NCBI GenBank assembly: GCA_963920705.1 | Contig: CAWUCO010000207.1 | Location: 1,674,001-1,738,000 of the forward strand | Length of the DNA stretch: 64,000 nucleotides | From: Odiellus spinosus | Taxonomy: Eukaryota; Arthropoda; Arachnida; Opiliones; Phalangiidae | Direction: 5' to 3' | Shown here: piece by piece, positions 1-64,000 of the stretch | Layout of the letters: each line of letters opens with the position of its first letter | Position numbering within the stretch: the first letter of the stretch is position 1 | The notes under the pieces: generated by a model | What the model was told of the DNA's origin: nothing | Databases searched by the model: none | What the model saw: the letters and a program-made list of their open reading frames with translations, nothing else | Position numbers and translations under genes: made by a program

Positions 1-35
1 CAAATTTCCCAAGTGCAGATCCACAAATTTTCCAA

Positions 36-2335
36 GTGCTGATCCACAAATTTTCTAAGTGCAGATCCACAAATTTCCCAAGTGAAGATCCGCAAATTTC
101 CCAAGTGCAGATCCGCAAATTTCCCAAGTGCAGATCCGCAAATTTCCCAAGTGCAGATCCGCAAATTTCCCAAGTGCAGATCCACAAATTTCCCAAGTGC
201 AGATCCAGAAATTTCCCAAGTGCAGATCCGCAAATTTCCCAAGTGCAGATCCGCAAATTTCCCAAGTGCAGATCCGCAAATTTCCCAAGTGCAGATCCAC
301 AAATTTTCTAAGTGCAGATCCATAAATTTCCCAAGTGAAGATCCGCAAATTTCCCAAGTGCAGATCCGCAAATTTCCCAAGTGCAGATCCGCAAATTTCC
401 CAAGTGCAGATCCACAAATTTCCCAAGTGCAGATCCAGAAATTTCCAAAGTGCAGATCCACAATTTTCCCAAGTGCAGATCCACAAATTTCCAAAGTGCA
501 GATCAAGAAATTTTCCAAGTGCAGATCCAGAAATTTCCCTAGTGCAGATCCAGAAATTTGCCAAGTGCAGATCCGCAAATTTCCCAAGTGCAGATCCGCA
601 ATTTTCCCAAGTGCAGATCCGCAAATTTCCCAAGAGCAGATCCGCAAATTTCCCAAGTGCAGGTCCGCAAATTTCTCAAGTGCAGATCCGCAAATTTCCC
701 AAGTGCAGATCCGCAAATTTCCCAAGTGCAGATCCGCAAATTTCCCAAGTGCAGATCCGCAAATTTCCCAAGTGCAGATCCGCAAATTTCCCAAGTGCAG
801 ATCCACAAATTTCCCAAGTGCAGATCCACAAATTTCCCAAGTGCAGATCCACAATTTTCCCAAGTGCAGATCCACAAATTTCCAAAGTTCAGATCCACAA
901 ATTTTCCAAGTGCAGATCCAGAAATTTCCCAAGTGCAGATCCGCAAATTTCCCAAGTGCAGATCCGCAATTTTCCCAAGTGCAGATCCACAAATTTCCCA
1001 AGTGCAGATCCAGAAATTTCCCTAGTGCAGATCTAGTTATTTCCCAAGTGCAGATCCACAAACTTCCCAATTGCAGATCCACAAATTTCCCAATAGCAGA
1101 TCCTCAAATTTCCCAAGTGTAGATCCGCCAATTTCCCAAGTGCACATCCGCAAATTTCCCTAGTGCAGATCCACAAATTTCCCAAGTGCAGATCCACAAA
1201 TTTCCCAAGTGCAGATCCACAAATTTCCAAAGTGCAGATCCACAAACTTTCCAAGTGCAGATCCACAAATTTCCCTTGTGCAGATCCAGAAATTTCTCTA
1301 GTGCAGATCCAGAAATTTCCCAAGTGCAGATCCACAAAATTTCCAAGTGCAGATCCACAAATTTCCCAAGTGCAGATCCGCAAATTTCCCAAGTGAAGAT
1401 CCGCAAATTACCCAAGTGCAGATCCGCAAATTTCAAAAGTGCAGATCCGCAAATTTCCCAAGTGCAGATCCGCAAATTTCCCAAGTGCAGATCCAAAAAT
1501 TTCCCAAGTGGAGATCCCCAAATTTCCCAAGTGCAGATTCGCAAATTTCCCAAGTGCAAATCCACAAATTTCCCTAGTGCAGATCCAGAAATTTCCCAAG
1601 TGCAGATCCGCAAATTTCCCAAGTGCAGATCCACAATTTTCCCAATTGCAGATCCGCAAATTTCCCAAGTGCAGATCCGCAAATTTCTCAAGTGCAGATC
1701 CGCAAATTTCCCAAGTGCAGATTCACAAACTTTCCAAGTGCAGATCCAGAAATTTCCCAAGTGCAGATCCACAAATTTCCCAAGTGCAGATCCACAATTT
1801 TCCCAATTGCAGATCCGCAAATTTCCCAAGTGCAGATCCGCAAATTTTCCAAGTGCAGATCCGCAAATTTATCAAGTGCAGATCCGCAAATTTCCCAAGT
1901 GCAGATCCGCAAATTTCCCAAGTGCAGATCCGCAAATTTCCCAAGTGCAGATCCGAAAATTTCCCTAGTGCAGATCCAGAAATTTCCCAAGTGCAGATCC
2001 GCAAATTTCCCAAGTGCAGATCCACAATTTTCCCAATTGCAGATCCGCAAATTTCCCAAGTGCAGATCCGCAAATTTCCCAAGTGCAGATCCGCAAATTT
2101 CTCAAGTGCAGATCCGCAAATTTCCCAAGTGCAGATCCGCAAATTTCCCAAGTGCAGATCCACAATTTTCCCAATTGCAGATCCGCAAATTTCCCAAGTG
2201 CAGATCCGCAAATTTCCCAAGTGCAGATCCGCAAATTTCCCAAGTGCAGATCCGCAAATTTCCCAAGTGCAGATCCGCAAATTTCCCAAGTGCAGATCCA
2301 CAAATTTCCCAAGTGCAGATCCAGAAATTTTCCAA
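36..2335 (+). repeat. HOR unit L0, 100 monomers, with M block
   Basis: This unit runs from the first anchor at 36 to the next at 2,336, which is 2,300 bp. It contains GATCTAGTTATT at 1,030 and the M block from about 1,071. It resembles L19 (21,035-23,104), which carries the same GATCTAG monomer 21,229 bp downstream. Both are followed by a 42-monomer B unit. Between about 320 and 1,030 the offset to L19 changes by seven monomers, so the pair differ by whole-monomer gains or losses. The last 400 bp (about 1,900-2,335) match 15,980-16,411 at an offset of 14,076 bp. Confidence 0.8.
1071..1780 (+). repeat. M block, copy 1
   Basis: A cluster of unusual monomers: CAATAGCAG, CCTCAAATTT, AAGTGTAGATCCGCC (GTGTAG at 1,117), GTGCACATCCGC, then CAAACTTTCC, CCCTTGTGCAG and TCTCTAGTG. 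The same order recurs 3,795 bp downstream. Similarity to copy 2 fades near 1,780. Confidence 0.82.
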
Positions 2336-3301
2336 GTGCTGATCCACAAATTTTCTAAGTGCAGATCCACAAATTTCCCAAGTGAAGATCCGCAAATTTC
2401 CCAAGTGCAGATCCGCAAATTTCCCAAGTGCAGATCCGCAAATTTAACAAATGCAGATCCGCAAATTTCCCAAGTGCAGATCCACAAATTTTCCAAGTGC
2501 AGATCCAGAAATTTCCCAAGTGCAGATCCGCAAATTTCCCAAGTGCAGATCCGCAAATTTCCCAAGTGCAGATCCGCAAATTTCCCAAGTGCAGATCCAC
2601 AAATTTCCCAAGTGCAGATCCAGAAATTTCCCAAGTGCAGATCCACAATTTTCCCAAGTGCAGATCCAGAAATTTCCCAAGTGCAGTTCCGCAAATTTCC
2701 CAAGTGCAGATCCACAAATTTCCCAAGTGCAGATCCACAATTTTCCCAATTGCAGATCCGCAAATTTCCCAAGTGCAGATCCGCAAATTTTCCAAGTGCA
2801 GATCCGCAAATTTCTCAAGTGCAGATCCGCAAATTTCCCAAGTGCAGATCCGCAAATTTCCCAAGTGCAGATACGCAAATTTCCCAAGTGCAGATCCGCA
2901 AATTTCCCAAGTGCAGATCCACAATTTTCCCAATTGCAGATCCGCAATTTTCCCAATTGCAGATCCGCAAATTTCCCAAGTGCAGATCCGCAAATTTCCC
3001 AAGTGCAGATCCTCAAATTTCTCAAGTGCAGATCCGCAAATTTCCCAAGTGCAGATCCGCAAATTTCCCAAGTGCAGATCCACAATTTTCCCAATTGCAG
3101 ATCCGCAAATTTCCCAAGTGCAGATCCGCAAATTTCCCAAATGCAGATCCGCAAATTTCTCAAGTGCAGATCCGCAAATTTCCCAAGTGCAGATCCGCAA
3201 TTTTCCCAAGTGCAGATCCGCAAATTTCCCAAGTGCAGATCCACAAATTTCCCAAGTGCAGATCCACAAATTTCCCAAGTGCAGATCCACAAATTTTCCA
3301 A
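2336..3301 (+). repeat. HOR unit L1, type B, 42 monomers
   Basis: Anchor at 2,336, TTTAAC marker 108 bp later (2,444), length 966 bp. It matches L15 (16,412) at an offset of 14,076 bp. Between the CCCAAATG monomer at 3,138 and the CAATTTT monomer at 3,198 L15 has one extra monomer, after which the offset becomes 14,099. The marker monomer here reads AACAAATG, a private variant of the usual AACAAGTG. Confidence 0.88.
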
Positions 3302-4543
3302 GTGCTGATCCACAAATTTTCTAAGTGCAGATCCACAAATTTCCCAAGTGAAGATCCGCAAATTTCCCAAGTGCAGATCCGCAAATTTCCCAAGTGCAGA
3401 TCCGCAAATTTCCCAAGTGCAGATCCGCAAATTTCCCAAGTGCAGATCCGCAAATTTCCCAAGTGCAGATCCACAAATTTCCCAAGTGCAGATCCAGAAA
3501 TTTCCCAAGTGCAGATCCGCAAATTTCCCAAGTGCAGATCCGCAAATTTCCCAAGTGCAGATCCGCAAATTTCCCAAGTGCAGTTCCGCAAATTTCCCAA
3601 GTGAAGATCCGCAAATTTCCCAAGTGCAGATCCGCAAATTTCCCAAGTGCAGATCCGCAAATTTAACAAGTGCAGATCCGCAAATTTCCCAAGTGCAGAT
3701 CCACAAATTTTCCAAGTGCAGATCCAGAAATTTCCCAAGTGCAGATCCGCAAATTTCCCAAGTGCAGATCCGCAAATTTCCCAAGTGCAGATCCGCAAAT
3801 TTCCCAAGTGCAGATCCACAAATTTCCCAAGTGCAGATCCAGAAATTTCCCAAGTGCAGATCCACAATTTTCCCAAGTGCAGATCCAGAAATTTCCCAAG
3901 TGCAGTTCCGCAAATTTCCCAAGTGCAGATCCACAAATTTCCCAAGTGCAGATCCACAATTTTCCCAATTGCAGATCCGCAAATTTCCCAAGTGCAGATC
4001 CGCAAATTTTCCAAGTGCAGATCCGCAAATTTCTCAAGTGCAGATCCGCAAATTTCCCAAGTGCAGATCCGCAAATTTCCCAAGTGCAGATACGCAAATT
4101 TCCCAAGTGCAGATCCGCAAATTTCCCAAGTGCAGATCCACAATTTTCCCAATTGCAGATCCGCAATTTTCCCAATTGCAGATCCGCAAATTTCCCAAGT
4201 GCAGATCCGCAAATTTCCCAAGTGCAGATCCGCAAATTTCTCAAGTGCAGATCCGCAAATTTCCCAAGTGCAGATCCGCAAATTTCCCAAGTGCAGATCC
4301 ACAATTTTCCCAATTGCAGATCCGCAAATTTCCCAAGTGCAGATCCGCAAATTTCCCAAATGCAGATCCGCAAATTTCTCAAGTGCAGATCCGCAAATTT
4401 CCCAAGTGCAGATCCGCAAATTTCCCAAGTGCAGATCCGCAATTTTCTCAAGTGCAGATCCGCAAATTTCCCAAGTGCAGATCCACAAATTTCCCAAGTG
4501 CAGATCCACAAATTTCCCAAGTGCAGATCCACAAATTTTCCAA
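3302..4543 (+). repeat. HOR unit L2, A-head/B-body chimera, 54 monomers
   Basis: Length is 1,242 bp. The head is A-type, with the marker at +361 (3,663). From the marker onward the unit follows the B body and lacks the CCGAAAATTT monomer of true A units at +511. The 881 bp after the marker match the B body of L15 in length (989 minus 108). It pairs with L16 (17,401-18,642), 14,099 bp downstream. Confidence 0.85.
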
Positions 4544-6314
4544 GTGCTGATCCACAAATTTTCTAAGTGCAGATCCACAAATTTCCCAAGTGAAGATCCG
4601 CAAATTTCCCAAGTGCAGATCCGCAAATTTCCCAAGTGCAGATCCGCAAATTTCCCAAGTGCAGATCCGCAAATTTCCCAAGTGCAGATCCGCAAATTTC
4701 CCAAGTGCAGATCCACAAATTTCCCAAGTGCAGATCCAGAAATTTCCCAAGTGCAGATCCGCAAATTTCCCAAGTGCAGATCCGCAAATTTCCCAAGTGC
4801 AGATCCGCAAATTTCCCAAGTGCAGTTCCGCAAATTTCCCAAGTGCAGATCCGCAAATTTCCCAATTGCAGATCCACAAATTTCCCAATAGCAGATCCTC
4901 AAATTTCCCAAGTGTAGATCCGCCAATTTCCCAAGTGCACATCCGCAAATTTCCCTAGTGCAGATCCACAAATTTCCCAAGTGCAGATCCACAAATTTCC
5001 CAAGTGCAGATCCACAAATTTCCAAAGTGCAGATCCACAAACTTTCCAAGTGCAGATCCACAAATTTCCCTTGTGCAGATCCAGAAATTTCTCTAGTGCA
5101 GATCCAGAAATTTCCCAAGTGCAGATCCACAAAATTTCCAAGTGCAGATCCACAAATTTCCCAAGTGCAGATCCGCAAATTTCCCAAGTGAAGATCCGCA
5201 AATTACCCAAGTGCAGATCCGCAAATTTCAAAAGTGCAGATCCGCAAATTTCCCAAGTGCAGATCCGCAAATTTCCCAAGTGCAGATCCAAAAATTTCCC
5301 AAGTGGAGATCCCCAAATTTCCCAAGTGCAGATTCGCAAATTTCCCAAGTGCAAATCCACAAATTTCCCTAGTGCAGATCCAGAAATTTCCCAAGTGCAG
5401 ATCCGCAAATTTCCCAAGTGCAGATCCACAATTTTCCCAATTGCAGATCCGCAAATTTCCCAAGTTCAGATCCGCAAATTTCTCAAGTGCAGATCCGCAA
5501 ATTTCCCAAGTGCAGATCCACAAATTTTCCAAGTGCAGATCCAGAAATTTCCCAAGTGCAGATCCGCAAATTTCCCAAGTGCAGATCCGCAAATTTCCCA
5601 AGTGCAGATACGCAAATTTCCCAAGTGCAGATCCACAAATTTCCCAAGTGCAGATCCAGAAATTTCCCAAGTGCAGATCCACAATTTTCCCAAGTGCAGA
5701 TCCAGAAATATCCCAAGTGCAGTTCCGCAAATTTCCCAAGTGCAGATCCACAAATTTCCCAAGTGCAGATCCACAATTTTCCCAATTGCAGATCCGCAAA
5801 TTTCCCAAGTGCAGATCCGCAAATTTTCCAAGTGCAGATCCGCAAATTTCTCAAGTGCAGATCCGCAAATTTCCCAAGTGCAGATCCGCAAATTTCCCAA
5901 GTGCAGATCCGCAAATTTCCCAAGTGCAGATCCGAAAATTTCCCTAGTGCAGATCCAGAAATTTCCCAAGTGCAGATCCGCAAATTTCCCAAGTGCAGAT
6001 CCACAATTTTCCCAATTGCAGATCCGCAAATTTCCCAAGTGCAGATCCGCAAATTTCCCAAGTGCAGATCCGCAAATTTCTCAAGTGCAGATCCGCAAAT
6101 TTCCCAAGTGCAGATCCGCAAATTTCCCAAGTGCAGATCCACAATTTTCCCAATTGCAGATCCGCAAATTTCCCAAGTGCAGATCCGCAAATTTCCCAAG
6201 TGCAGATCCGCAAATTTCCCAAGTGCAGATCCGCAAATTTCCCAAGTGCAGATCCGCAAATTTCCCAAGTGCAGATCCACAAATTTCCCAAGTGCAGATC
6301 CACAAATTTTCCAA
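4544..6314 (+). repeat. HOR unit L3, type C, 77 monomers
   Basis: Length 1,771 bp, with no TTTAAC marker. The M block begins about 320 bp in, with GTGTAG at 4,912 (+368). Private monomers such as CCAGAAATAT at 5,702 and AAGTTCAG at 5,462 recur in L17 exactly 14,099 bp away. In the 1.3 kb I compared by translation I found two differences from L17. Both are a C/G change at monomer position 1, near 5,093 and 6,302. Confidence 0.9.
4866..5575 (+). repeat. M block, copy 2 (in L3)
   Basis: GTGTAG at 4,912, which is 165 monomers after copy 1. CAATAG and the following GTGCACATCC order are preserved. The 3' part diverges from copy 1 at AAGTTCAG (5,462). Confidence 0.85.
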
Positions 6315-7280
6315 GTGCTGATCCACAAATTTTCTAAGTGCAGATCCACAAATTTCCCAAGTGAAGATCCGCAAATTTCCCAAGTGCAGATCCGCAAATT
6401 TCCCAAGTGCAGATCCGCAAATTTAACAAGTGCAGATCCGCAAATTTCCCAAGTGCAGATCCACAAATTTTCCAAGTGCAGATCCAGAAATTTCCCAAGT
6501 GCAGATCCGCAAATTTCCCAAGTGCAGATCCGCAAATTTCCCAAGTGCAGATCCGCAAATTTCCAAAGTGCAGATCCACAAATTTCCCAAGTGCAGATCC
6601 AGAAATTTCCCAAGTGCAGATAAACAATTTTCCCAAGTGCAGATCCAGAAATTTCCCAAGTGCAGTTCCGCAAATTTCCCAAGTGCAGATCCACAAATTT
6701 CCCAAGTGCAGATCCACAATTTTCCCAATTGCAGATCCGCAAATTTCCCAAGTGCAGATCCGCAAATTTTCCAAGTGCAGATCCGCAAATTTCTCAAGTG
6801 CGGATCCGCAAATTTCCCAAGTGCAGATCCGCAAATTTCCCAAGTGCAGATACGCAAATTTCCCAAGTGCAGATCCGCAAATTTCCCAAGTGCAGATCCA
6901 CAATTTTCCCAATTGCAGATCCGCAATTTTCCCAATTGCAGATCCGCAAATTTCCCAAGTGCAGATCCGCAAATTTCCCAAGTGCAGATCCGCAAATTTC
7001 TCAAGTGCAGATCCGCAAATTTCCCAAGTGCAGATCCGCAAATTTCCCAAGTGCAGATCCACAATTTTCCCAATTGCAGATCCGCAAATTTCCCAAGTGC
7101 AGATCCGCAAATTTCCCAAATGCAGATCCGCAAATTTCTCAAGTGCAGATCCGCAAATTTCCCAAGTGCAGATCCGCAAATTTCCCAAGTGCAGATCCGC
7201 AATTTTCCCAAGTGCAGATCCGCAAATTTCCCAAGTGCAGATCCACAAATTTCCCAAGTGCAGATCCACAAATTTTCCAA
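6315..7280 (+). repeat. HOR unit L4, type B, 42 monomers
   Basis: Marker at +108 (6,423), length 966 bp, the same length as L1 and L20. Its duplicate L18 (20,414) lacks 15 of its monomers. Private variants include AAGTGCGGATCC near 6,800 and GATAAACAATT near 6,620. Confidence 0.87.
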
Positions 7281-8292
7281 GTGCTGATCCACAAATTTTC
7301 TAAGTGCAGATCCACAAATTTCCCAAGTGAAGATCCGCCAATTTCCCAAGTGCAGATCCGCAAATTTCCCAAGTGCAGATCCGCAAATTTCCCAAGTGCA
7401 GATCCGCAAATTTCCCAAGTGCAGATCCGCAAATTTCCCAAGTGCAGATCCACAAATTTCCCAAGTGCAGATCCAGAAATTTCCCAAGTGCAGATCCGCA
7501 AATTTCCCAAGTGCAGATCCGCAAATTTCCCAAGTGCAGATCCGCAAATTTCCCAAGTGCAGTTCCGCAAATTTCCCAAGTGAAGATCCGCAAATTTCCC
7601 AAGTGCAGATCCGCAAATTTCCCAAGTGCAGATCCGCAAATTTAACAAGTGCAGATCCGCAAATTTCCCAAGTGCAGATCCACAAATTTTCCAAGTGCAG
7701 ATCCAGAAATTTCCCAAGTGCAGATCCGCAAATTTCCCAAGTGCAGATCCGCAAATTTCCCAAGTGCAGATCCGCAAATTTCCCAAGTGCAGATCCGAAA
7801 ATTTCCCTAGTGCAGATCCAGAAATTTCCCAAGTGCAGATCCGCAAATTTCCCAAGTGCAGATCCACAATTTTCCCAATTGCAGATCCGCAAATTTCCCA
7901 AGTGCAGATCCGCAAATTTCCCAAGTGCAGATCCGCAAATTTCTCAAGTGCAGATCCGCAAATTTCCCAAGTGCAGATCCGCAAATTTCTCAAGTGCAGA
8001 TCCGCAAATTTCCCAAGTGCAGATCCGCAAATTTCCCAAGTGCAGATCCACAATTTTCCCAATTGCAGATCCGCAAATTTCCCAAGTGCAGATCCGCAAA
8101 TTTCCCAAATGCAGATCCGCAAATTTCTCAAGTGCAGATCCGCAAATTTCCCAAGTGCAGATCCGCAAATTTCCCAAGTGCAGATCCGCAATTTTCCCAA
8201 GTGCAGATCCGCAAATTTCCCAAGTGCAGATCCACAAATTTCCCAAGTGCAGATCCACAAATTTCCCAAGTGCAGATCCACAAATTTTCCAA
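7281..8292 (+). repeat. HOR unit L5, A unit with B-type tail, 44 monomers
   Basis: Length 1,012 bp. Marker at +361 (7,642) and CCGAAAATTT at +511 (7,792), as in A units. The last part carries the CCCAAATG monomer and the CCGCAATTTT group typical of B tails. This looks like an A/B recombinant in the opposite position to L2. It is one of the units whose third anchor-region monomer reads GAAGATCCGCC rather than GAAGATCCGCA. Confidence 0.82.
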
Positions 8293-9189
8293 GTGCTGAT
8301 CCACAAATTTTCTAAGTGCAGATCCACAAATTTCCCAAGTGAAGATCCGCCAATTTCCCAAGTGCAGATCCGCAAATTTCCCAAGTGCAGATCCGCAAAT
8401 TTCCCAAGTGCAGATCCGCAAATTTCCCAAGTGCAGATCCGCAAATTTCCCAAGTGCAGATCCACAAATTTCCCAAGTGCAGATCCAGAAATTTCCCAAG
8501 TGCAGATCCGCAAATTTCCCAAGTGCAGATCCGCAAATTTCCCAAGTGCAGATCCGCAAATTTCCCAAGTGCAGTTCCGCAAATTTCCCAAGTGAAGATT
8601 CGCAAATTTCCCAAGTGCAGATCCGCAAATTTCCCAAGTGCAGATCCGCAAATTTAACAAGTGCAGATCCGCAAATTTCCCAAGTGCAGATCCACAAATT
8701 TTCCAAGTGCAGATCCAGAAATTTCCCAAGTGCAGATCCGCAAATTTCCCAAGTGCAGATCCGCAAATTTCCCAAGTGCAGATCCGCAAATTTCCCAAGT
8801 GCAGATCCGAAAATTTCCCTAGTGCAGATCCAGAAATTTCCCAAGTGCAGATCCGCAAATTTCCCAAGTGCAGATCCACAATTTTCCCAATTGCAGATCC
8901 GCAAATTTCCCAAGTGCAGATCCGCAAATTTCCCAAGTGCAGATCCGCAAATTTCTCAAGTGCAGATCCGCAAATTTCCCAAGTGCAGATCCGCAAATTT
9001 CCCAAGTGCAGATCCACAATTTTCCCAATTGCAGATCCGCAAATTTCCCAAGTGCAGATCCGCAAATTTCCCAAGTGCAGATCCGCAAATTTCCCAAGTG
9101 CAGATCCGCAAATTTCCCAAGTGCAGATCCGCAAATTTCCCAAGTGCAGATCCACAAATTTCCCAAGTGCAGATCCAGAAATTTTCCAA
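8293..9189 (+). repeat. HOR unit L6, type A, 39 monomers
   Basis: A canonical A unit of 897 bp: GAAGATCCGCC just after the anchor, marker at +361 (8,654) and CCGAAAATTT at +511 (8,804). Nearly identical to L10 and L14. One visible private change is GAAGATTCGC near 8,598. With L7 it forms a complete A+B dimer of 77 monomers. Confidence 0.9.
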
Positions 9190-10063
9190 GTGCTGATCCA
9201 CAAATTTTCTAAGTGCAGATCCACAAATTTCCCAAGTGAAGATCCGCAAATTTCCCAAGTGCAGATCCGCAAATTTCCCAAGTGCAGATCCGCAAATTTA
9301 ACAAGTGCAGATCCGCAAATTTCCCAAGTGCAGATCCACAAATTTTCCAAGTGCAGATCCAGAAATTTCCCAAGTGCAGATCCGCAAATTTCCCAAGTGC
9401 AGATCCGCAAATTTCCCAAGTGCAGATCCGCAAATTTCCCAAGTGCAGATCCACAAATTTCCCAAGTGCAGATCCAGAAATTTCCCAAGTGCAGATCCAC
9501 AATTTTCCCAAGTGCAGATCCAGAAATTTCCCAAGTGCAGTTCCGCAAATTTCCCAAGTGCAGATCCACAAATTTCCCAAGTGCAGATCCACAATTTTCC
9601 CAATTGCAGATCCGCAAATTTCCCAAGTGCAGATCCGCAAATTTTCCAAGTGCAGATCCGCAAATTTCTCAAGTGCAGATCCGCAAATTTCCCAAGTGCA
9701 GATCCGCAAATTTCCCAAGTGCAGATACGCAAATTTCCCAAGTGCAGATCCGCAAATTTCCCAAGTGCAGATCCACAATTTTCCCAATTGCAGATCCGCA
9801 ATTTTCCCAATTGCAGATCCGCAAATTTCCCAAGTGCAGATCCGCAAATTTCCCAAGTGCAGATCCGCAAATTTCCCAAATGCAGATCCGCAAATTTCTC
9901 AAGTGCAGATCCGCAAATTTCCCAAGTGCAGATCCGCAAATTTCCCAAGTGCAGATCCGCAATTTTCCCAAGTGCAGATCCGCAAATTTCCCAAGTGCAG
10001 ATCCACAAATTTCCCAAGTGCAGATCCACAAATTTCCCAAGTGCAGATCCACAAATTTTCCAA
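9190..10063 (+). repeat. HOR unit L7, type B, 38 monomers
   Basis: A canonical short B unit of 874 bp with the marker at +108 (9,298). It carries the paired CAATTTTCCCAATTG monomers preceded by GATACGC that mark B bodies. Same length and layout as L9 and L13. Confidence 0.9.
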
Positions 10064-11282
10064 GTGCTGATCCACAAATTTTCTAAGTGCAGATCCACAA
10101 ATTTCCCAAGTGAAGATCCGCCAATTTCCCAAGTGCAGATCCGCAAATTTCCCAAGTGCAGATCCGCAAATTTCCCAAGTGCAGATCCGCAAATTTCCCA
10201 AGTGCAGATCCGCAAATTTCCCAAGTGCAGATCCACAAATTTCCCAAGTGCAGATCCAGAAATTTCCCAAGTGCAGATCCGCAAATTTCCCAAGTGCAGA
10301 TCCGCAAATTTCCCAAGTGCAGATCCGCAAATTTCCCAAGTGCAGTTCCGCAAATTTCCCAAGTGAAGATCCGCAAATTTCCCAAGTGCAGATCCGCAAA
10401 TTTCCCAAGTGCAGATCCGCAAATTTAACAAGTGCAGATCCGCAAATTTCCCAAGTGCAGATCCACAAATTTTCCAAGTGCAGATCCAGAAATTTCCCAA
10501 GTGCAGATCCGCAAATTTCCCAAGTGCAGATCCGCAAATTTCCCAAGTGCAGATCCGCAAATTTCCCAAGTGCAGATCCGAAAATTTCCCTAGTGCAGAT
10601 CCAGAAATTTCCCAAGTGCAGATCCGCAAATTTCCCAAGTGCAGATCCACAATTTTCCCAATTGCAGATCCGCAAATTTCCCAAGTGCAGATCCGCAAAT
10701 TTCCCAAGTGCAGATCCGCAAATTTCTCAAGTGCAGATCCGCAAATTTCCCAAGTGCAGATCCGCAAATTTCCCAAGTGCAGATCCACAATTTTCCCAAT
10801 TGCAGATCCGCAAATTTCCCAAGTGCAGATCCGCAAATTTCCCAAGTGCAGATCCGCAAATTTCCCAAGTGCAGATCCGCAAATTTCCCAAGTGCAGATC
10901 CGAAAATTTCCCTAGTGCAGATCCAGAAATTTCCCAAGTGCAGATCCGCAAATTTCCCAAGTGCAGATCCACAATTTTCCCAATTGCAGATCCGCAAATT
11001 TCCCAAGTGCAGATCCGCAAATTTCCCAAGTGCAGATCCGCAAATTTCTCAAGTGCAGATCCGCAAATTTCCCAAGTGCAGATCCGCAAATTTCCCAAGT
11101 GCAGATCCACAATTTTCCCAATTGCAGATCCGCAAATTTCCCAAGTGCAGATCCGCAAATTTCCCAAGTGCAGATCCGCAAATTTCCCAAGTGCAGATCC
11201 GCAAATTTCCCAAGTGCAGATCCGCAAATTTCCCAAGTGCAGATCCACAAATTTCCCAAGTGCAGATCCAGAAATTTTCCAA
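10064..11282 (+). repeat. HOR unit L8, type A with internal 14-monomer duplication, 53 monomers
   Basis: An A unit: marker at +361 (10,425), CCGAAAATTT at +511 (10,575). It is 322 bp longer than 897 because a 14-monomer stretch is duplicated: the CCGAAAATTT monomer recurs at 10,897. Length is 39 + 14 = 53 monomers, 1,219 bp. Confidence 0.9.
10557..11200 (+). repeat. 322-bp local tandem duplication inside L8
   Basis: GATCCGAAAATTT occurs at 10,575 and 10,897, and CAATTTTCCCAATTG monomers near 10,650 and 10,788 recur near 10,972 and 11,110. Each pair is 322 bp (14 monomers) apart. The other A units have only one copy of this stretch. Edges are approximate to one monomer. Confidence 0.85.
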
Positions 11283-12156
11283 GTGCTGATCCACAAATTT
11301 TCTAAGTGCAGATCCACAAATTTCCCAAGTGAAGATCCGCAAATTTCCCAAGTGCAGATCCGCAAATTTCCCAAGTGCAGATCCGCAAATTTAACAAGTG
11401 CAGATCCGCAAATTTCCCAAGTGCAGATCCACAAATTTTCCAAGTGCAGATCCAGAAATTTCCCAAGTGCAGATCCGCAAATTTCCCAAGTGCAGATCCG
11501 CAAATTTCCCAAGTGCAGATCCGCAAATTTCCCAAGTGCAGATCCACAAATTTCCCAAGTGCAGATCCAGAAATTTCCCAAGTGCAGATCCACAATTTTC
11601 CCAAGTGCAGATCCAGAAATTTCCCAAGTGCAGTTCCGCAAATTTCCCAAGTGCAGATCCACAAATTTCCCAAGTGCAGATCCACAATTTTCCCAATTGC
11701 AGATCCGCAAATTTCCCAAGTGCAGATCCGCAAATTTTCCAAGTGCAGATCCGCAAATTTCTCAAGTGCAGATCCGCAAATTTCCCAAGTGCAGATCCGC
11801 AAATTTCCCAAGTGCAGATACGCAAATTTCCCAAGTGCAGATCCGCAAATTTCCCAAGTGCAGATCCACAATTTTCCCAATTGCAGATCCGCAATTTTCC
11901 CAATTGCAGATCCGCAAATTTCCCAAGTGCAGATCCGCAAATTTCCCAAGTGCAGATCCGCAAATTTCCCAAATGCAGATCCGCAAATTTCTCAAGTGCA
12001 GATCCGCAAATTTCCCAAGTGCAGATCCGCAAATTTCCCAAGTGCAGATCCGCAATTTTCCCAAGTGCAGATCCGCAAATTTCCCAAGTGCAGATCCACA
12101 AATTTCCCAAGTGCAGATCCACAAATTTCCCAAGTGCAGATCCACAAATTTTCCAA
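11283..12156 (+). repeat. HOR unit L9, type B, 38 monomers
   Basis: 874 bp, marker at +108 (11,391). It starts the run 11,283-14,042 that reappears at 14,641-17,400, offset 3,358 bp. The anchor series L9-L10-L11 (38, 39, 43) repeats as L13-L14-L15. Confidence 0.9.
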
Positions 12157-13053
12157 GTGCTGATCCACAAATTTTCTAAGTGCAGATCCACAAATTTCCC
12201 AAGTGAAGATCCGCCAATTTCCCAAGTGCAGATCCGCAAATTTCCCAAGTGCAGATCCGCAAATTTCCCAAGTGCAGATCCGCAAATTTCCCAAGTGCAG
12301 ATCCGCAAATTTCCCAAGTGCAGATCCACAAATTTCCCAAGTGCAGATCCAGAAATTTCCCAAGTGCAGATCCGCAAATTTCCCAAGTGCAGATCCGCAA
12401 ATTTCCCAAGTGCAGATCCGCAAATTTCCCAAGTGCAGTTCCGCAAATTTCCCAAGTGAAGATCCGCAAATTTCCCAAGTGCAGATCCGCAAATTTCCCA
12501 AGTGCAGATCCGCAAATTTAACAAGTGCAGATCCGCAAATTTCCCAAGTGCAGATCCACAAATTTTCCAAGTGCAGATCCAGAAATTTCCCAAGTGCAGA
12601 TCCGCAAATTTCCCAAGTGCAGATCCGCAAATTTCCCAAGTGCAGATCCGCAAATTTCCCAAGTGCAGATCCGAAAATTTCCCTAGTGCAGATCCAGAAA
12701 TTTCCCAAGTGCAGATCCGCAAATTTCCCAAGTGCAGATCCACAATTTTCCCAATTGCAGATCCGCAAATTTCCCAAGTGCAGATCCGCAAATTTCCCAA
12801 GTGCAGATCCGCAAATTTCTCAAGTGCAGATCCGCAAATTTCCCAAGTGCAGATCCGCAAATTTCCCAAGTGCAGATCCACAATTTTCCCAATTGCAGAT
12901 CCGCAAATTTCCCAAGTGCAGATCCGCAAATTTCCCAAGTGCAGATCCGCAAATTTCCCAAGTGCAGATCCGCAAATTTCCCAAGTGCAGATCCGCAAAT
13001 TTCCCAAGTGCAGATCCACAAATTTCCCAAGTGCAGATCCAGAAATTTTCCAA
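12157..13053 (+). repeat. HOR unit L10, type A, 39 monomers
   Basis: 897 bp, marker at +361 (12,518). Its duplicate L14 has the marker at 15,876, an offset of exactly 3,358 bp. Confidence 0.9.
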
Positions 13054-14042
13054 GTGCTGATCCACAAATTTTCTAAGTGCAGATCCACAAATTTCCCAAG
13101 TGAAGATCCGCAAATTTCCCAAGTGCAGATCCGCAAATTTCCCAAGTGCAGATCCGCAAATTTAACAAGTGCAGATCCGCAAATTTCCCAAGTGCAGATC
13201 CACAAATTTTCCAAGTGCAGATCCAGAAATTTCCCAAGTGCAGATCCGCAAATTTCCCAAGTGCAGATCCGCAAATTTCCCAAGTGCAGATCCGCAAATT
13301 TCCCAAGTGCAGATCCACAAATTTCCCAAGTGCAGATCCAGAAATTTCCCAAGTGCAGATCCACAATTTTCCCAAGTGCAGATCCAGAAATTTCCCAAGT
13401 GCAGTTCCGCAAATTTCCCAAGTGCAGATCCACAAATTTCCCAAGTGCAGATCCACAATTTTCCCAATTGCAGATCCGCAAATTTCCCAAGTGCAGATCC
13501 GCAAATTTTCCAAGTGCAGATCCGCAAATTTCTCAAGTGCAGATCCGCAAATTTCCCAAGTGCAGATCCGCAAATTTCCCAAGTGCAGATACGCAAATTT
13601 CCCAAGTGCAGATCCGCAAATTTCCCAAGTGCAGATCCACAATTTTCCCAATTGCAGATCCGCAATTTTCCCAATTGCAGATCCGCAAATTTCCCAAGTG
13701 CAGATCCGCAAATTTCCCAAGTGCAGATCCGCAAATTTCTCAAGTGCAGATCCGCAAATTTCCCAAGTGCAGATCCGCAAATTTCCCAAGTGCAGATCCA
13801 CAATTTTCCCAATTGCAGATCCGCAAATTTCCCAAGTGCAGATCCGCAAATTTCCCAAATGCAGATCCGCAAATTTCTCAAGTGCAGATCCGCAAATTTC
13901 CCAAGTGCAGATCCGCAAATTTCCCAAGTGCAGATCCGCAATTTTCCCAAGTGCAGATCCGCAAATTTCCCAAGTGCAGATCCACAAATTTCCCAAGTGC
14001 AGATCCACAAATTTCCCAAGGGCAGATCCACAAATTTTCCAA
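13054..14042 (+). repeat. HOR unit L11, type B extended, 43 monomers
   Basis: 989 bp, marker at +108 (13,162). It is five monomers longer than the 38-mer B units, the extra part lying in the second half. Its partner is L15. Confidence 0.87.
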
Positions 14043-14640
14043 GTTCTGATCCACAAATTTTCTAAGTGCAGATCCACAAATTTCCCAAGTGAAGATCCGC
14101 CAATTTCCCAAGTGCAGATCCGCAAATTTCCCAAGTGCAGATCCACAATTTTCCCAATTGCAGATCCGCAAATTTCCCAAGTGCAGATCCGCAAATTTCC
14201 CAAGTGCAGATCCGCAAATTTCCCAAGTGCAGATCCGCAAATTTCCCAAGTGCAGATCCGAAAATTTCCCTAGTGCAGATCCAGAAATTTCCCAAGTGCA
14301 GATCCGCAAATTTCCCAAGTGCAGATCCACAATTTTCCCAATTGCAGATCCGCAAATTTCCCAAGTGCAGATCCGCAAATTTCCCAAGTGCAGATCCGCA
14401 AATTTCTCAAGTGCAGATCCGCAAATTTCCCAAGTGCAGATCCGCAAATTTCCCAAGTGCAGATCCACAATTTTCCCAATTGCAGATCCGCAAATTTCCC
14501 AAGTGCAGATCCGCAAATTTCCCAAGTGCAGATCCGCAAATTTCCCAAGTGCAGATCCGCAAATTTCCCAAGTGCAGATCCGCAAATTTCCCAAGTGCAG
14601 ATCCACAAATTTCCCAAGTGCAGATCCAGAAATTTTCCAA
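14043..14640 (+). repeat. HOR unit L12, type A with 13-monomer deletion, 26 monomers
   Basis: The anchor is mutated to GTTCTGATCC. CCGAAAATTT lies at +212 (14,255) instead of +511, a loss of 299 bp (13 monomers) that removes the TTTAAC marker. Length is 598 bp, which is 39 minus 13 monomers. Confidence 0.85.
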
Positions 14641-15514
14641 GTGCTGATCCACAAATTTTCTAAGTGCAGATCCACAAATTTCCCAAGTGAAGATCCGCAA
14701 ATTTCCCAAGTGCAGATCCGCAAATTTCCCAAGTGCAGATCCGCAAATTTAACAAGTGCAGATCCGCAAATTTCCCAAGTGCAGATCCACAAATTTTCCA
14801 AGTGCAGATCCAGAAATTTCCCAAGTGCAGATCCGCAAATTTCCCAAGTGCAGATCCGCAAATTTCCCAAGTGCAGATCCGCAAATTTCCCAAGTGCAGA
14901 TCCACAAATTTCCCAAGTGCAGATCCAGAAATTTCCCAAGTGCAGATCCACAATTTTCCCAAGTGCAGATCCAGAAATTTCCCAAGTGCAGTTCCGCAAA
15001 TTTCCCAAGTGCAGATCCACAAATTTCCCAAGTGCAGATCCACAATTTTCCCAATTGCAGATCCGCAAATTTCCCAAGTGCAGATCCGCAAATTTTCCAA
15101 GTGCAGATCCGCAAATTTCTCAAGTGCAGATCCGCAAATTTCCCAAGTGCAGATCCGCAAATTTCCCAAGTGCAGATACGCAAATTTCCCAAGTGCAGAT
15201 CCGCAAATTTCCCAAGTGCAGATCCACAATTTTCCCAATTGCAGATCCGCAATTTTCCCAATTGCAGATCCGCAAATTTCCCAAGTGCAGATCCGCAAAT
15301 TTCCCAAGTGCAGATCCGCAAATTTCCCAAATGCAGATCCGCAAATTTCTCAAGTGCAGATCCGCAAATTTCCCAAGTGCAGATCCGCAAATTTCCCAAG
15401 TGCAGATCCGCAATTTTCCCAAGTGCAGATCCGCAAATTTCCCAAGTGCAGATCCACAAATTTCCCAAGTGCAGATCCACAAATTTCCCAAGTGCAGATC
15501 CACAAATTTTCCAA
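14641..15514 (+). repeat. HOR unit L13, type B, 38 monomers
   Basis: 874 bp, marker at +108 (14,749). Duplicate of L9 at an offset of 3,358 bp. Confidence 0.9.
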
Positions 15515-16411
15515 GTGCTGATCCACAAATTTTCTAAGTGCAGATCCACAAATTTCCCAAGTGAAGATCCGCCAATTTCCCAAGTGCAGATCCGCAAATT
15601 TCCCAAGTGCAGATCCGCAAATTTCCCAAGTGCAGATCCGCAAATTTCCCAAGTGCAGATCCGCAAATTTCCCAAGTGCAGATCCACAAATTTCCCAAGT
15701 GCAGATCCAGAAATTTCCCAAGTGCAGATCCGCAAATTTCCCAAGTGCAGATCCGCAAATTTCCCAAGTGCAGATCCGCAAATTTCCCAAGTGCAGTTCC
15801 GCAAATTTCCCAAGTGAAGATCCGCAAATTTCCCAAGTGCAGATCCGCAAATTTCCCAAGTGCAGATCCGCAAATTTAACAAGTGCAGATCCGCAAATTT
15901 CCCAAGTGCAGATCCACAAATTTTCCAAGTGCAGATCCAGAAATTTCCCAAGTGCAGATCCGCAAATTTCCCAAGTGCAGATCCGCAAATTTCCCAAGTG
16001 CAGATCCGCAAATTTCCCAAGTGCAGATCCGAAAATTTCCCTAGTGCAGATCCAGAAATTTCCCAAGTGCAGATCCGCAAATTTCCCAAGTGCAGATCCA
16101 CAATTTTCCCAATTGCAGATCCGCAAATTTCCCAAGTGCAGATCCGCAAATTTCCCAAGTGCAGATCCGCAAATTTCTCAAGTGCAGATCCGCAAATTTC
16201 CCAAGTGCAGATCCGCAAATTTCCCAAGTGCAGATCCACAATTTTCCCAATTGCAGATCCGCAAATTTCCCAAGTGCAGATCCGCAAATTTCCCAAGTGC
16301 AGATCCGCAAATTTCCCAAGTGCAGATCCGCAAATTTCCCAAGTGCAGATCCGCAAATTTCCCAAGTGCAGATCCACAAATTTCCCAAGTGCAGATCCAG
16401 AAATTTTCCAA
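15515..16411 (+). repeat. HOR unit L14, type A, 39 monomers
   Basis: 897 bp, marker at +361 (15,876). Duplicate of L10. Its last part also matches about 1,900-2,335, the end of L0, at an offset of 14,076 bp, which places the left edge of the 14.1-kb duplication inside this unit. Confidence 0.9.
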
Positions 16412-17400
16412 GTGCTGATCCACAAATTTTCTAAGTGCAGATCCACAAATTTCCCAAGTGAAGATCCGCAAATTTCCCAAGTGCAGATCCGCAAATTTCC
16501 CAAGTGCAGATCCGCAAATTTAACAAGTGCAGATCCGCAAATTTCCCAAGTGCAGATCCACAAATTTTCCAAGTGCAGATCCAGAAATTTCCCAAGTGCA
16601 GATCCGCAAATTTCCCAAGTGCAGATCCGCAAATTTCCCAAGTGCAGATCCGCAAATTTCCCAAATGCAGATCCACAAATTTCCCAAGTGCAGATCCAGA
16701 AATTTCCCAAGTGCAGATCCACAATTTTCCCAAGTGCAGATCCAGAAATTTCCCAAGTGCAGTTCCGCAAATTTCCCAAGTGCAGATCCACAAATTTCCC
16801 AAGTGCAGATCCACAATTTTCCCAATTGCAGATCCGCAAATTTCCCAAGTGCAGATCCGCAAATTTTCCAAGTGCAGATCCGCAAATTTCTCAAGTGCAG
16901 ATCCGCAAATTTCCCAAGTGCAGATCCGCAAATTTCCCAAGTGCAGATACGCAAATTTCCCAAGTGCAGATCCGCAAATTTCCCAAGTGCAGATCCACAA
17001 TTTTCCCAATTGCAGATCCGCAATTTTCCCAATTGCAGATCCGCAAATTTCCCAAGTGCAGATCCGCAAATTTCCCAAGTGCAGATCCGCAAATTTCTCA
17101 AGTGCAGATCCGCAAATTTCCCAAGTGCAGATCCGCAAATTTCCCAAGTGCAGATCCACAATTTTCCCAATTGCAGATCCGCAAATTTCCCAAGTGCAGA
17201 TCCGCAAATTTCCCAAATGCAGATCCGCAAATTTCTCAAGTGCAGATCCGCAAATTTCCCAAGTGCAGATCCGCAAATTTCCCAAGTGCAGATCCGCAAT
17301 TTTCCCAAGTGCAGATCCGCAAATTTCCCAAGTGCAGATCCACAAATTTCCCAAGTGCAGATCCACAAATTTCCCAAGTGCAGATCCACAAATTTTCCAA
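16412..17400 (+). repeat. HOR unit L15, type B extended, 43 monomers
   Basis: 989 bp, marker at +108 (16,520). It resembles both L11 (offset 3,358) and L1 (offset 14,076, one monomer shorter there), so two separate copying events meet in this unit. Confidence 0.88.
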
Positions 17401-18642
17401 GTGCTGATCCACAAATTTTCTAAGTGCAGATCCACAAATTTCCCAAGTGAAGATCCGCCAATTTCCCAAGTGCAGATCCGCAAATTTCCCAAGTGCAGAT
17501 CCGCAAATTTCCCAAGTGCAGATCCGCAAATTTCCCAAGTGCAGATCCGCAAATTTCCCAAGTGCAGATCCACAAATTTCCCAAGTGCAGATCCAGAAAT
17601 TTCCCAAGTGCAGATCCGCAAATTTCCCAAGTGCAGATCCGCAAATTTCCCAAGTGCAGATCCGCAAATTTCCCAAGTGCAGTTCCGCAAATTTCCCAAG
17701 TGAAGATCCGCAAATTTCCCAAGTGCAGATCCGCAAATTTCCCAAGTGCAGATCCGCAAATTTAACAAGTGCAGATCCGCAAATTTCCCAAGTGCAGATC
17801 CACAAATTTTCCAAGTGCAGATCCAGAAATTTCCCAAGTGCAGATCCGCAAATTTCCCAAGTGCAGATCCGCAAATTTCCCAAGTGCAGATCCGCAAATT
17901 TCCCAAGTGCAGATCCACAAATTTCCCAAGTGCAGATCCAGAAATTTCCCAAGTGCAGATCCACAATTTTCCCAAGTGCAGATCCAGAAATTTCCCAAGT
18001 GCAGTTCCGCAAATTTCCCAAGTGCAGATCCACAAATTTCCCAAGTGCAGATCCACAATTTTCCCAATTGCAGATCCGCAAATTTCCCAAGTGCAGATCC
18101 GCAAATTTTCCAGGTGCAGATCCGCAAATTTCTCAAGTGCAGATCCGCAAATTTCCCAAGTGCAGATCCGCAAATTTCCCAAGTGCAGATACGCAAATTT
18201 CCCAAGTGCAGATCCGCAAATTTCCCAAGTGCAGATCCACAATTTTCCCAATTGCAGATCCGCAATTTTCCCAATTGCAGATCCGCAAATTTCCCAAGTG
18301 CAGATCCGCAAATTTCCCAAGTGCAGATCCGCAAATTTCTCAAGTGCAGATCCGCAAATTTCCCAAGTGCAGATCCGCAAATTTCCCAAGTGCAGATCCA
18401 CAATTTTCCCAATTGCAGATCCGCAAATTTCCCAAGTGCAGATCCGCAAATTTCCCAAATGCAGATCAGCAAATTTCTCAAGTGCAGATCCGCAAATTTC
18501 CCAAGTGCAGATCCGCAAATTTCCCAAGTGCAGATCCGCAATTTTCCCAAGTGCAGATCCGCAAATTTCCCAAGTGCAGATCCACAAATTTCCCAAGTGC
18601 AGATCCACAAATTTCCCAAGTGCAGATCCACAAATTTTCCAA
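17401..18642 (+). repeat. HOR unit L16, A-head/B-body chimera, 54 monomers
   Basis: 1,242 bp, marker at +361 (17,762), 14,099 bp from L2. It starts with the A-type GAAGATCCGCC, where L2 has GAAGATCCGCA. Private substitutions include TTCCAGGTGC near 18,113 and GATCAGC near 18,467. Confidence 0.86.
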
Positions 18643-38205: not shown

Positions 38206-39366
38206 AAATTTCCCAAGTGCAGATCCACAATTTTCCCAAGTGCAGATCCACAAATTTCCAAAGTGCAGATCCACAAATTTTCCAAGTGCAGATCCAGAAA
38301 TTTCCCTAGTGCAGATCCAGAAATTTCCCAAGTGCAGATCCGCAAATTTCCCAAGTCCAGATCCGCAATTTTCCCAAGTGCAGATCCACAAATTTCCCAA
38401 GTACAGATCCGCAAATTTCCCAAGTGCAGATCCGCAAATTTCTCAAGTGCAGATCCGCAAATTTCCCAAGTGCAGATCCGCAAATTTCCCAAGTGCAGAT
38501 CCGCAAATTTCCCTTGTGCAGATCCAGAAATTTCCCAAGTGCAGATCCACAAATTTCCCAAGTGCAGATCCGCAAATTTCCCATGTACAGATCCGCAAAT
38601 TTCCCAAGTGCAGATCCACAAATTTCTCAAGTACAGATACGCAAATTTCAAAAGTGCAGATCCACAAATTTCCCTAGTACAGATCCACAAATTTCCCAAG
38701 TGCAGATCCACAAATTTCCCAAGTGCAGATCCAGAAATTTCCCATGTGCAGATCCACCATTTTCCCAAGTGCAGATCCACAAATTTCCAAAGTGCAGATC
38801 CACAAATTTTCCAAGTGCAGATCCAGAAATTTCCCTAGTGCAGATCCAGAAATTTCCCAAGTGCAGATCCGCAAATTTCCCAAGTGCAGATCCGCAATTT
38901 TCCCAAGTGCAGATCCGCAAATTTCCCAAGTGCAGATCCGCAAATTTCCCAAGTGCAGATCCGCAAATTTCTCAAGTGCAGATCCGCAAATTTCCCAAGT
39001 GCAGATCCGCAAATTTCAAAAGTGCAGATCCGCAAATTTCCCAAGAGCAGATCCAGAAATTTCCCTAGTGCAGATCCAGAAATTTCCCAAGTGCAGATCC
39101 GCAAATTTCCCAAGTCCAGATCCGCAATTTTCCCAAGTGCAGATCCGCAAATTTCCCAAGTACAGATCCGCAAATTTCCCAAGTGCAGATCCGCAAATTT
39201 CTCAAGTGCAGATCCGCAAATTTCCCAAGTGCAGATCCGCAAATTTCCCAAGTGCAGATCCGCAAATTTCCCAAGTGCAGATCCACAAATTTCCCAAGTG
39301 CAGTTCCGCAAATTTCACAAGTGCAGATCCACAAATTTCCCAAGTGCAGATCCACAAATTTTCCAA
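38206..39366 (+). repeat. Right-domain segment between duplications
   Basis: Contains CCACCAT at 38,754 (37 monomers after 37,903), CCCTTGTGCAG near 38,511, GTACAGATACGC near 38,633 and CAAGAGCAG near 39,046. It is made of the same clusters in a shorter arrangement. I could not assign it to a single larger duplication. Confidence 0.65.
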
Positions 39367-53580: not shown

Positions 53581-53599
53581 CAGATCCGCAAATTTCTCA

Positions 53600-62462: not shown

Positions 62463-62490
62463 TCCAATAATTTCCCAAGTGCAGATCCAC

Positions 62491-64000
62491 AAATTTTCCA
62501 AGTGCTGATCCACAAATTTCAAAAGTGCAGATCCACAATTTTCCCAAGTGCAGATCCACAAATTTCAAAAGTTCAGATCCACAAATTTTCCAAGTGCAGA
62601 TCCGCAAATTTCCCATGTACAGATCCGCAAATTTCCCATGTACAGATCCGCAAATTTCCCAAGTGCAGATCCACAAATTTCTCAAGTACAGATACGCAAA
62701 TTTCAAAAGTGCAGATCCACAAATTTCCCTAGTACAGATCCAGAAATTTCCCATGTGCAGATCCACCATTTTCCCAAGTGCAGATCCAAAAATTTCCAAA
62801 GTGCAGATCCACAAATTTTCCAAGTGCAGATCCAGAAATTTCCCTAGTGCAGATCCAGAAATTTCCCAAGTGCAGATCCGCAAATTTCCCAAGTGCAGAT
62901 CCGCAAATTTCCCAAGTGCAGATCCGCAAATTTCCCAAGTGCAGATCCGCAAATTTCTCAAGTGCAAATCCGCAAATTTCCCAAGTGCAGATCCGCAAAT
63001 TTCCCAAGTGCAGATCCGCAAATTTCCCAAGAGCAGATCCAGAAATTTTCCAAGTGCAGATCCACAAATTTTCTAAGTGCAGATCCACAAATATCCCAAG
63101 TGAAGATCCGCAAATTTCCCAAGTGCAGATCCGCAAATTTCCCATGTGCAGATCCGCAAATTTCCCAAGTGCAGATCCACAAATTTCCCAAATGCAGATC
63201 CAGAAATTTCCCAAGTGCAGATCCACAATTTTCCCAAGTGCAGATCCACAAATTTCCAAAGTGCAGATCCACAAATTTTCCAAGTGCAGATCCAGAAATT
63301 TCCCTAGTGCAGATCCAGAAATTTCCCAAGTGCAGATCCGCAAATTTCACAAGTCCAGATCCGCAATTTTCCCAAGTGCAGATCCGCAAATTTCCCAAGT
63401 GCAGATCCGCAAATTTCTCAAGTGCAGATCCGCAAATTTCTCAAGTGCAGATCCGCAAATTTCCCAAGTGCAGATCCTCAAATTTCCCAAGTGCAGATCC
63501 GCAAATTTCCCAAGTGCAGATCCACAAATTTCCCAAGTGCAGTTCCGCAAATTTCACAAGTGCAGATCCAATAATTTCCCAAGTGCAGATCCACAAATTT
63601 TCCAAGTGCTGATCCACAAATTTTCTAAGTGCAGATCCACAAATTTCCCTAGTGCAGATCCAGAAATTTCCCAAGTGCAGATCCGCAAATTTCCCAAGTT
63701 CAGATCCGCAAATTTCCCAAGTGCAGATCCGCAAATTTCCCAAGTGCAGATCCTTAAATTTCCCAAGTGCAGATCCGCAAATTTCCCAAGTGCAGTTCCG
63801 CAAATTTCCCAAGTGCAGATCCACAAATTTCCCAAGTGCAGATCCAGAAATTTTCCAAGTGCTGATCCACAAATTTCCCAAGTGCAGATCCACAATTTTC
63901 CCAAGTGCAGATCCACAAATTTTCTAAGTGCAGATCCACAAATTTCCCTAGTGCAGATCCAGAAATTTCCCAAGTGCAGATCCGCAAATTTCCCAAGTTC
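62491..64000 (+). repeat. 3,059-bp-spaced duplication, copy 2 (runs off the window)
   Basis: CCACCAT at 62,763, CACAAGTCC at 63,348, AATAAT at 63,570. CCTTAAATTT at 63,751 replaces CCGCAAATTT of copy 1. Similarity is still present at the last base, so the copy continues beyond the window. Confidence 0.84.
62958..63398 (+). repeat. E block, copy 4
   Basis: CACAAGTCC at 63,348. Copied together with the rest of the 3,059-bp block. It shares CCCATGTGCAGATCCGC near 63,143 with copy 3 (60,084), a variant absent from copies 1 and 2. Confidence 0.8.

What the first reader, a model, noticed from the sequence alone, without database searches (positions are those of the whole stretch)
1..64000. A 64-kb pure 23-bp satellite that I do not recognise
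Seen: the whole window is one monomer family in one orientation with no inserted element or unique sequence. Inference: a eukaryotic heterochromatic satellite, possibly centromeric. I know of no named satellite with this monomer, but I cannot search. Its continuation beyond both ends means the true array is larger.
Basis: partly seen in the sequence, partly recalled or inferred. Interest (0 to 1): 0.8.

Follow-up and report, generated by a model that had tools for sequence, protein, structure and literature searches.

The report
Megabase 23-bp satellite in arthropod-like genome
The window is the middle of a roughly 1.1-million-base block of a 23-letter repeat that also fills the starts of several chromosome sequences of an unnamed, probably arthropod genome; it is ordinary repetitive chromosome DNA in kind, although I found no description of this repeat, and its link to the centromere is untested.

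Summary
All 64 kb are 2,783 head-to-tail 23-bp units (consensus CAAATTTCCCAAGTGCAGATCC, then G 54% or A 45%), one orientation, 4 indel bases, no insertion. The window lies in contig C207 (2.39 Mb) of an unnamed 443-Mb animal genome with TTAGG telomeres, probably arthropod. The C207 array is about 1.1 Mb (25 of 25 sampled places, 0.875-1.98 Mb), changes orientation, and sits between 383-bp and 194-bp AT-rich satellites. It is not a single locus: about 472,000 sites within 3 mismatches of two dimers correspond to about 10.9 Mb, 2.4% of the assembly, if none is counted twice. Sampled arrays of 2-4 Mb begin at base 1 of scaffolds C8, C12, C15 and C16; C11 has one from 3.2 kb. The G23 variant is 55-64% in the C207 core and 0-2% in eight other sampled groups. 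85% of the window lies in >=1,150-bp segments with a >=97% second copy, 0% in 5 unit-order shuffles. Best reading: a pericentromeric or chromosome-end heterochromatic satellite. Centromere function is untested; a 383-bp satellite is a rival. An apparent folding signal vanished under the proper control. New member of a known kind.

The parts
1..64000 (+). Part of a ~1.1-Mb array of 23-bp satellite monomers, consensus CAAATTTCCCAAGTGCAGATCC(G/A)
3451..6900 (+). Three 1,150-bp blocks 99.1-99.9% identical to copies 613 monomers (14.1 kb) further on: example of recent segmental duplication
8719..12811 (+). Two copies of a >=2,000-bp exact repeat starting at 8719 and 10812 (offset 91 monomers)
4001..20000 (+). 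Stretch richest in the G23 variant (63-69% of monomers per 4-kb bin), against 45-51% in the nine bins from 28001 on and 53-56% in the remaining three
38572..42984 (+). Longest stretch without a >=97% second copy of >=1,150 bp in the window

Best explanation
A non-coding 23-bp satellite forming constitutive heterochromatin at pericentromeric and/or chromosome-end blocks of an unnamed animal, probably an arthropod. SHOWN: arrays of megabase size (by samples) at or near the start of five chromosome-scale scaffolds and on unplaced contigs; variant groups, one of them (G23) apparently local to C207; orientation changes on a large scale; nested near-identical segmental copies; other satellites beside it. 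INFERRED: unequal exchange, replication-based or circle-mediated amplification and gene conversion copy segments of tens to hundreds of monomers within a block, which made the C207 core uniform and gave it its own variant; the TA variant, shared by several scaffolds, shows that sequence also moved between chromosomes or descends from an older common form. INFERRED, not tested: the blocks are packed as H3K9-methylated chromatin and support cohesion or packing, as pericentromeric satellites do elsewhere (recalled). Whether any of it binds CENP-A is unknown. This overlaps with the first two rivals, so the odds do not sum to 1.
For: About 472,000 genome-wide sites, 0 for the reversed control patterns. 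Scaffolds C8, C12, C15, C16 begin in the array. Later samples: C12 positive at 7 of 7 places from 0.3 to 3.0 Mb and negative at 3.2, 3.5, 5 and 12 Mb; C8 positive at 3 of 3 from 0.1 to 1.5 Mb, listed at 3.00 Mb, negative at 3.5 and 5 Mb; C15 positive at 4 of 4 from 0.3 to 2.2 Mb, negative at 3 Mb; C16 positive at 3 of 3 from 0.5 to 3.0 Mb, negative at 4 Mb. Three of these places (C12 3.0, C15 0.778, C16 1.864 Mb) were picked because one search had listed hits there. C11 carries it from 3.2 kb. G23 is 64% in the window part and 55% in the C207 core sampled, 0-2% in eight other groups. 85% of the window is in recent duplicates, 0% in 5 shuffles. C207 neighbours are 383-bp and 194-bp satellites, and frames that by eye look transposon-like.
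Against: No chromatin, FISH or transcription data. The scaffolds stop inside the arrays, so chromosome end and broken centromere cannot be told apart. The first 300 bases of C14 are telomere repeat, and C6, C17 and C18 start in other tandem repeats, so the satellite does not mark every scaffold start. Local homogenisation is uneven: units are more alike within than between groups for the C207 core with the window and for inner C12, but not for C15 (0.861 within, 0.878 with C12), C8 (0.870, 0.892 with the C207 right end), C16 (0.869, 0.886 with the C12 start) or the C207 left flank (0.850, 0.859-0.861 with C12).
Confidence: 0.7

Rival explanations
1. It is the centromere DNA proper: CENP-A nucleosomes sit on the 23-bp array in at least a subset of chromosomes, the rest using other satellites.
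For: Megabase size, mixed orientation and 23-bp monomer parallel the CENH3-bound Chio arrays of Chionographis japonica (passages of PMC10264360). The uniform C207 core (0.899 within) with a more divergent left flank (0.850 within) is the layout expected of an active, expanding core (the expectation is recalled); the right edge is abrupt.
Against: In the partial listings the scaffolds C1, C3-C7, C9, C10, C13, C14, C17 and C18 do not appear, and C2 appears with a single site. The 383-bp satellite, which matches its own reverse complement at about 79%, is on C6, C8, C9, C18, C20, C206 and C207 and is at least as good a candidate. No CENP-C domain match (the control genomes named in the answers are prokaryotes, so weak). 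No Chio core motif or CENP-B box in the window.
Confidence: 0.25
2. It is a subtelomeric satellite block of one chromosome end, unrelated to centromeres.
For: In five of 16 chromosome-scale scaffolds the array is at or within 3.2 kb of the scaffold start, and in 3 of those 5 (C11, C12, C15) the other end is TTAGG telomere. By eye, other scaffold ends carry short-period repeats of their own (C17, C18, C13, C8).
Against: No sample showed TTAGG next to the array; the scaffolds break inside it. C207 has the array between two other satellites, not at an end.
Confidence: 0.25
3. Protein-coding repeat or gene-internal minisatellite: the consensus has no stop codon in any frame.
For: 419 stop-to-stop frames of at least 100 aa in the window, the longest 1,218 aa; only 4 indel bases.
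Against: Open frames occur on both strands and overlap because the 23-mer happens to lack stops. The array is ~1.1 Mb, changes orientation and recurs on many scaffolds.
Confidence: 0.01
4. Assembly artefact or contaminant.
For: C207 carries no chromosome assignment that I could see and has the round length 2,390,000.
Against: Other scaffolds, including C11, C12 and C15 with TTAGG ends, carry the family in other variants; 0 exact hits in viral and prokaryote contigs. Exact copy number and inversions in C207 still rest on one assembly.
Confidence: 0.02

Closest known systems
Chio1 satellite of Chionographis japonica (plant holocentromere, 23-bp monomer)
   Same: 23-bp monomer, megabase arrays, forward- and reverse-oriented blocks mixed (passages of PMC10264360)
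   Different: Plant; the 9-bp TTCGTACGA of the Chio monomer (passage of PMC12722358) is absent from the window; CENH3 binding shown there, untested here; its cluster is 16.11% of that genome, this family about 2.4% of the assembly
Horse 2PI satellite (23-bp repeat, centromeric/pericentromeric)
   Same: 23-bp unit, next to longer satellites (passages of PMC9024551)
Insect pericentromeric satellites in general
   Same: Megabase tandem arrays in satellite- and transposon-rich blocks (recalled)
   Different: Monomer not matched to any; recalled, not searched in Repbase or Dfam

Membership tests
Satellite DNA (general class) | Long head-to-tail arrays of one monomer family | tested here: met
Satellite DNA (general class) | Concerted evolution: copies within an array more alike than copies from other arrays | tested here: inconclusive
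   ten groups: met for the C207 core with the window (0.899-0.925 within, at most 0.886 with other scaffolds) and inner C12 (0.903, at most 0.886); not met for C15, C8, C16 and the C207 left flank. G23 is 55-64% in the C207 core, 0-2% elsewhere
Satellite DNA (general class) | Heterochromatic packaging (H3K9me) | not testable with these tools
   no chromatin data
Centromeric satellite | Bound by CENP-A/CenH3 | not testable with these tools
   no ChIP data
Centromeric satellite | Present at each centromere of the complement | tested here: inconclusive
   C1, C3-C7, C13, C14, C17, C18 do not appear in the partial listings, C2 only once; scaffolds may lack their centromeres
Centromeric satellite with CENP-B box | CENP-B box (TTCGNNNNANNCGGG, recalled) | tested here: not met
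   0 matches in the window; not searched on other scaffolds
Chio satellite family | Shared 9-bp TTCGTACGA | tested here: not met
   0 matches in the window; motif from a passage of PMC12722358
Horse 2PI | Sequence similarity | not tested
   2PI sequence not held
Higher-order-repeat satellite (alpha-satellite style) | One regular multimer period | tested here: not met
   No dominant long period in the window; best offsets vary from block to block, from 1 to 916 monomers

The most novel reading that the evidence does not exclude
In this animal the centromeres of a subset of chromosomes are built on megabase arrays of a 23-bp satellite, with a variant private to at least one array, a convergent counterpart of the 23-bp Chio centromere units of a plant, while other chromosomes use a 383-bp satellite.
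Probability: 0.2. Interest if true: 0.5.

Novelty: new member of a known kind. Interest (0 to 1): 0.3.

Why it matters
The assembly reads through megabases of a short-period satellite with distinct variants and nested duplications, so it is a usable case for testing how satellite blocks expand and homogenise. If CENP-A binds it, it would show that a 23-bp, non-nucleosome-length monomer can carry centromeres in an animal as it does in Chionographis. If not, it is one more abundant satellite.

Tried and rejected
Hairpin or cruciform function: the fold tool gave z -8.0 for the minus strand and -2.6 for the plus strand of ten monomers, but in tandem arrays of shuffled monomers the better strand folds at least as strongly in 16% (G form), 52% (A), 39% (TG) and 80% (TA) of 300 shuffles each. 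Dropped as an artefact of tandem repetition. The G and TG forms share a 10-of-12 imperfect dyad (TGYAGATCCRCA), the A form has 8 of 12 there and the TA form lacks it; not significant.

Regular higher-order repeat: none with a fixed period in the window.

Single-locus array: my first reading after (exact G-form dimers, the 100 listed places all in C207), overturned.

Species identification: I compared the COX1 reading by recall only and reached no order; a 7tm_6 search gave a single locus, a search for the assembly size in papers gave one unrelated paper, and the two 18S searches failed. Naming stays at animal, probably arthropod.

Kinetochore genes: CENP-C_C gave no match; without a eukaryote control this is not evidence of absence.

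Literature: of eight text searches (I saw the listings) I followed only Chionographis and horse 2PI, plus one general review; I saw passages of PMC12722358, PMC10264360, PMC9024551 and PMC8122249 and opened no other paper. Other satellite papers listed were not opened.
Full report
WHAT IS THERE. The window is 64,000 bases of one tandem array (1-63998, period 23, 2782.6 copies). A wrap-around alignment gives 2,783 units, 2,779 of them 23 bp long, 166 distinct strings (the cut-off last unit included); the consensus itself makes up 725 units, and the mean edit distance is 1.32. Three deleted and one inserted bases are all the indels. Position 23 is the one strongly split position, G 54% and A 45%, and like neighbours like: GG 1,137 and AA 894, against GA 360 and AG 355. 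Identity of neighbouring units is only slightly above that of random pairs in the 4-kb bins (0.903-0.938 against 0.891-0.931).

HOW THE ARRAY IS BUILT. There is no fixed higher-order period; the best offsets differ from block to block. But 85% of the window lies in segments of at least 1,150 bp that have a second copy of at least 97% identity elsewhere in the window, and exact repeats of at least 2,000 bp occur. When the 23-bp units are put in random order this falls to 0% in 5 of 5 shuffles. So the block grew by repeated copying of segments of tens to hundreds of monomers, recently enough to leave near-identical copies (inference). The low indel count may partly follow from this: the variants are copies of few events.

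WHERE IT LIES. The window is C207:1674001-1738000 of a 443,074,358-base genome in 286 contigs. Contig C286 (16,074 bases) is mitochondrial, its COX1 frame holding 10 TGA codons. Of the 16 scaffolds over 9 Mb among C1-C20 (C1-C8, C11-C18) I read 13 ends, and 9 of the 13 are TTAGG repeats: C1, C2, C3, C5, C11, C12, C15, C17, C18. TTAGG is the usual arthropod telomere motif (recalled). I read this as an arthropod-like animal; the species is unknown to me.

MAP OF C207. From the left: 383-bp satellite in the samples at 0, 0.1, 0.2, 0.3, 0.4, 0.6, 0.7 and 0.8 Mb; other sequence at 0.45, 0.5 and 0.85 Mb; the 23-bp array at 25 of 25 sampled places from 0.875 to 1.98 Mb, the window counted as one; 194-bp satellite at 2.05, 2.1, 2.2, 2.3 and 2.35 Mb, and by eye at 1.99 Mb; a stretch with transposon-like frames (by eye) at 2.0 Mb; the 23-bp array again (TA form, CAAATTTCCCAAGTATAGATTCA) at the right end. 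The left part of the array (0.90-1.01 Mb) is of the TG form (CAAATTTCCCAAGTGTAGATCCA; T16 in 98% of 574 units) and more divergent; the first listed exact G-form dimer is at 1.039 Mb. Orientation in the samples is + to about 1.146 Mb, - to between 1.650 and 1.656 Mb (with a short + patch near 1.396 Mb), then + through the window and beyond.

GENOME-WIDE. The 45-base A-form dimer has 206,696 sites within 3 mismatches, and the TA-form dimer 265,519; the reversed controls have 0. One site corresponds to one 23-bp step, so together about 10.9 Mb, 2.4% of the assembly, if no site is counted twice; more divergent copies are missed. In the window 2,447 sites pass the A-form test against 2,783 units. 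An exact TG-form trimer has 9,473 sites. The exact G-form 46-mer has 4,168 sites. The 100 listed places are all in C207, none in a lower-numbered contig; higher-numbered contigs were not listed. The density in 13 fetched 10-kb stretches between 1.10 and 1.91 Mb (581 sites) predicts about 4,200 for 1.04-1.98 Mb of C207, or about 4,650 with the window added, so the G form appears local to C207.

VARIANTS BETWEEN BLOCKS. In ten groups of sampled units G23 is 64% in the first 20 kb of the window, 55% in the C207 core and 0-2% in the other eight. Mean identity of random unit pairs is 0.925 within the window part and 0.899 within the C207 core, but at most 0.886 with other scaffolds and 0.77 with C8. 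Inner C12 also is more alike within (0.903) than with others (at most 0.886). C15, C8, C16 and the C207 left flank are not: each is as close or closer to another group than to itself. The TA form is found at the starts of C8, C12 and C16, on C21, C90 and C225 and at the C207 right end, so a scaffold can hold several forms and a form several scaffolds. Local homogenisation is therefore shown for the C207 core and inner C12 only.

ON OTHER SCAFFOLDS. Of the 16 large scaffold starts (first 300 bases read), 4 begin in the 23-bp array (C8, C12, C15, C16); C11 does not but has it from 3.2 kb; C14 begins in telomere repeats, C6 in 383-bp satellite, C17 and C18 in other short repeats; C2 and C13 read N; the other five (C1, C3, C4, C5, C7) show none of these satellites, C1 having mixed TTAGG/TCAGG repeats. 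Samples place the far edge at 3.00-3.20 Mb on C12, 3.00-3.5 Mb on C8, 3.0-4.0 Mb on C16 and 2.2-3.0 Mb on C15. Of 20 smaller contigs sampled at their first 400 bases, 6 read N and 3 of the other 14 carry the family (C21, C90, C225); C19, C20 and C25 do not; C37, picked because one search hit it, does. The listings are partial; in them C1, C3-C7, C9, C10, C13, C14, C17 and C18 do not appear and C2 appears once.

FUNCTION. Shown: size, places, variants, duplication pattern. Inferred: heterochromatin, and growth by unequal exchange or other copying, as reviewed for satellites in general (passages of PMC8122249). Centromere function is possible, since 23-bp arrays of this size and mixed orientation carry CENH3 in Chionographis (passages of PMC10264360), but nothing here tests it, and the uneven spread over scaffolds and the 383-bp satellite argue for caution. 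A folding signal was examined and rejected.

NOVELTY. No paper in the held library contains the 22-mer as one string. A 3-kb part of the window has no match in plasmids, and an exact 33-base pattern none in viral contigs or prokaryote genomes. Repbase and Dfam could not be searched. I file it as a new member of a known kind: a satellite family of which I found no description.

Noticed in passing
L009, L010 (C207:1-10000, 100001-110000); also C6 start, C8 7.97-8.01 Mb, C9 2.23 and 2.33 Mb, C18 0.44 and 0.64 Mb, C20, C206: A 383-bp AT-rich satellite whose monomer matches its own reverse complement at about 79% over some 190-214 bp; found on seven of the contigs seen and a rival centromeric candidate.
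   Followed up: partly
L027 (C207:2200001-2210000): A 194-bp AT-rich satellite to the right of the 23-bp array, with weaker inner periods of 55 and 83 bp.
   Followed up: no
C17:1.1-4.4 Mb (L029-L031): Several partial COX1 copies with TGA, and some with TAG or TAA, on one chromosome scaffold: probably a cluster of nuclear mitochondrial insertions.
   Followed up: no
L045, L046, L059, L064 (C17 start, C18 start, C8 end, C13 end): Scaffold ends in other short-period tandem repeats (roughly 13 to 21 bp by eye), different on each of these scaffolds.
   Followed up: no
L032 (C1 start): Mixed TTAGG and TCAGG repeats near the scaffold start, perhaps a degenerate telomere.
   Followed up: no
L026 (C207:2000001-2010000): Long open frames that by eye look like a gag-pol retroelement and, separately, other repeat-like genes between the 23-bp and 194-bp satellites; not searched against families.
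   Followed up: no
window, positions 16 and 23 of the monomer: The G and TG forms keep an imperfect dyad by C16/G23 or T16/A23; the A form (C16/A23) weakens it. Transitions at a CpG explain it as well.
   Followed up: partly
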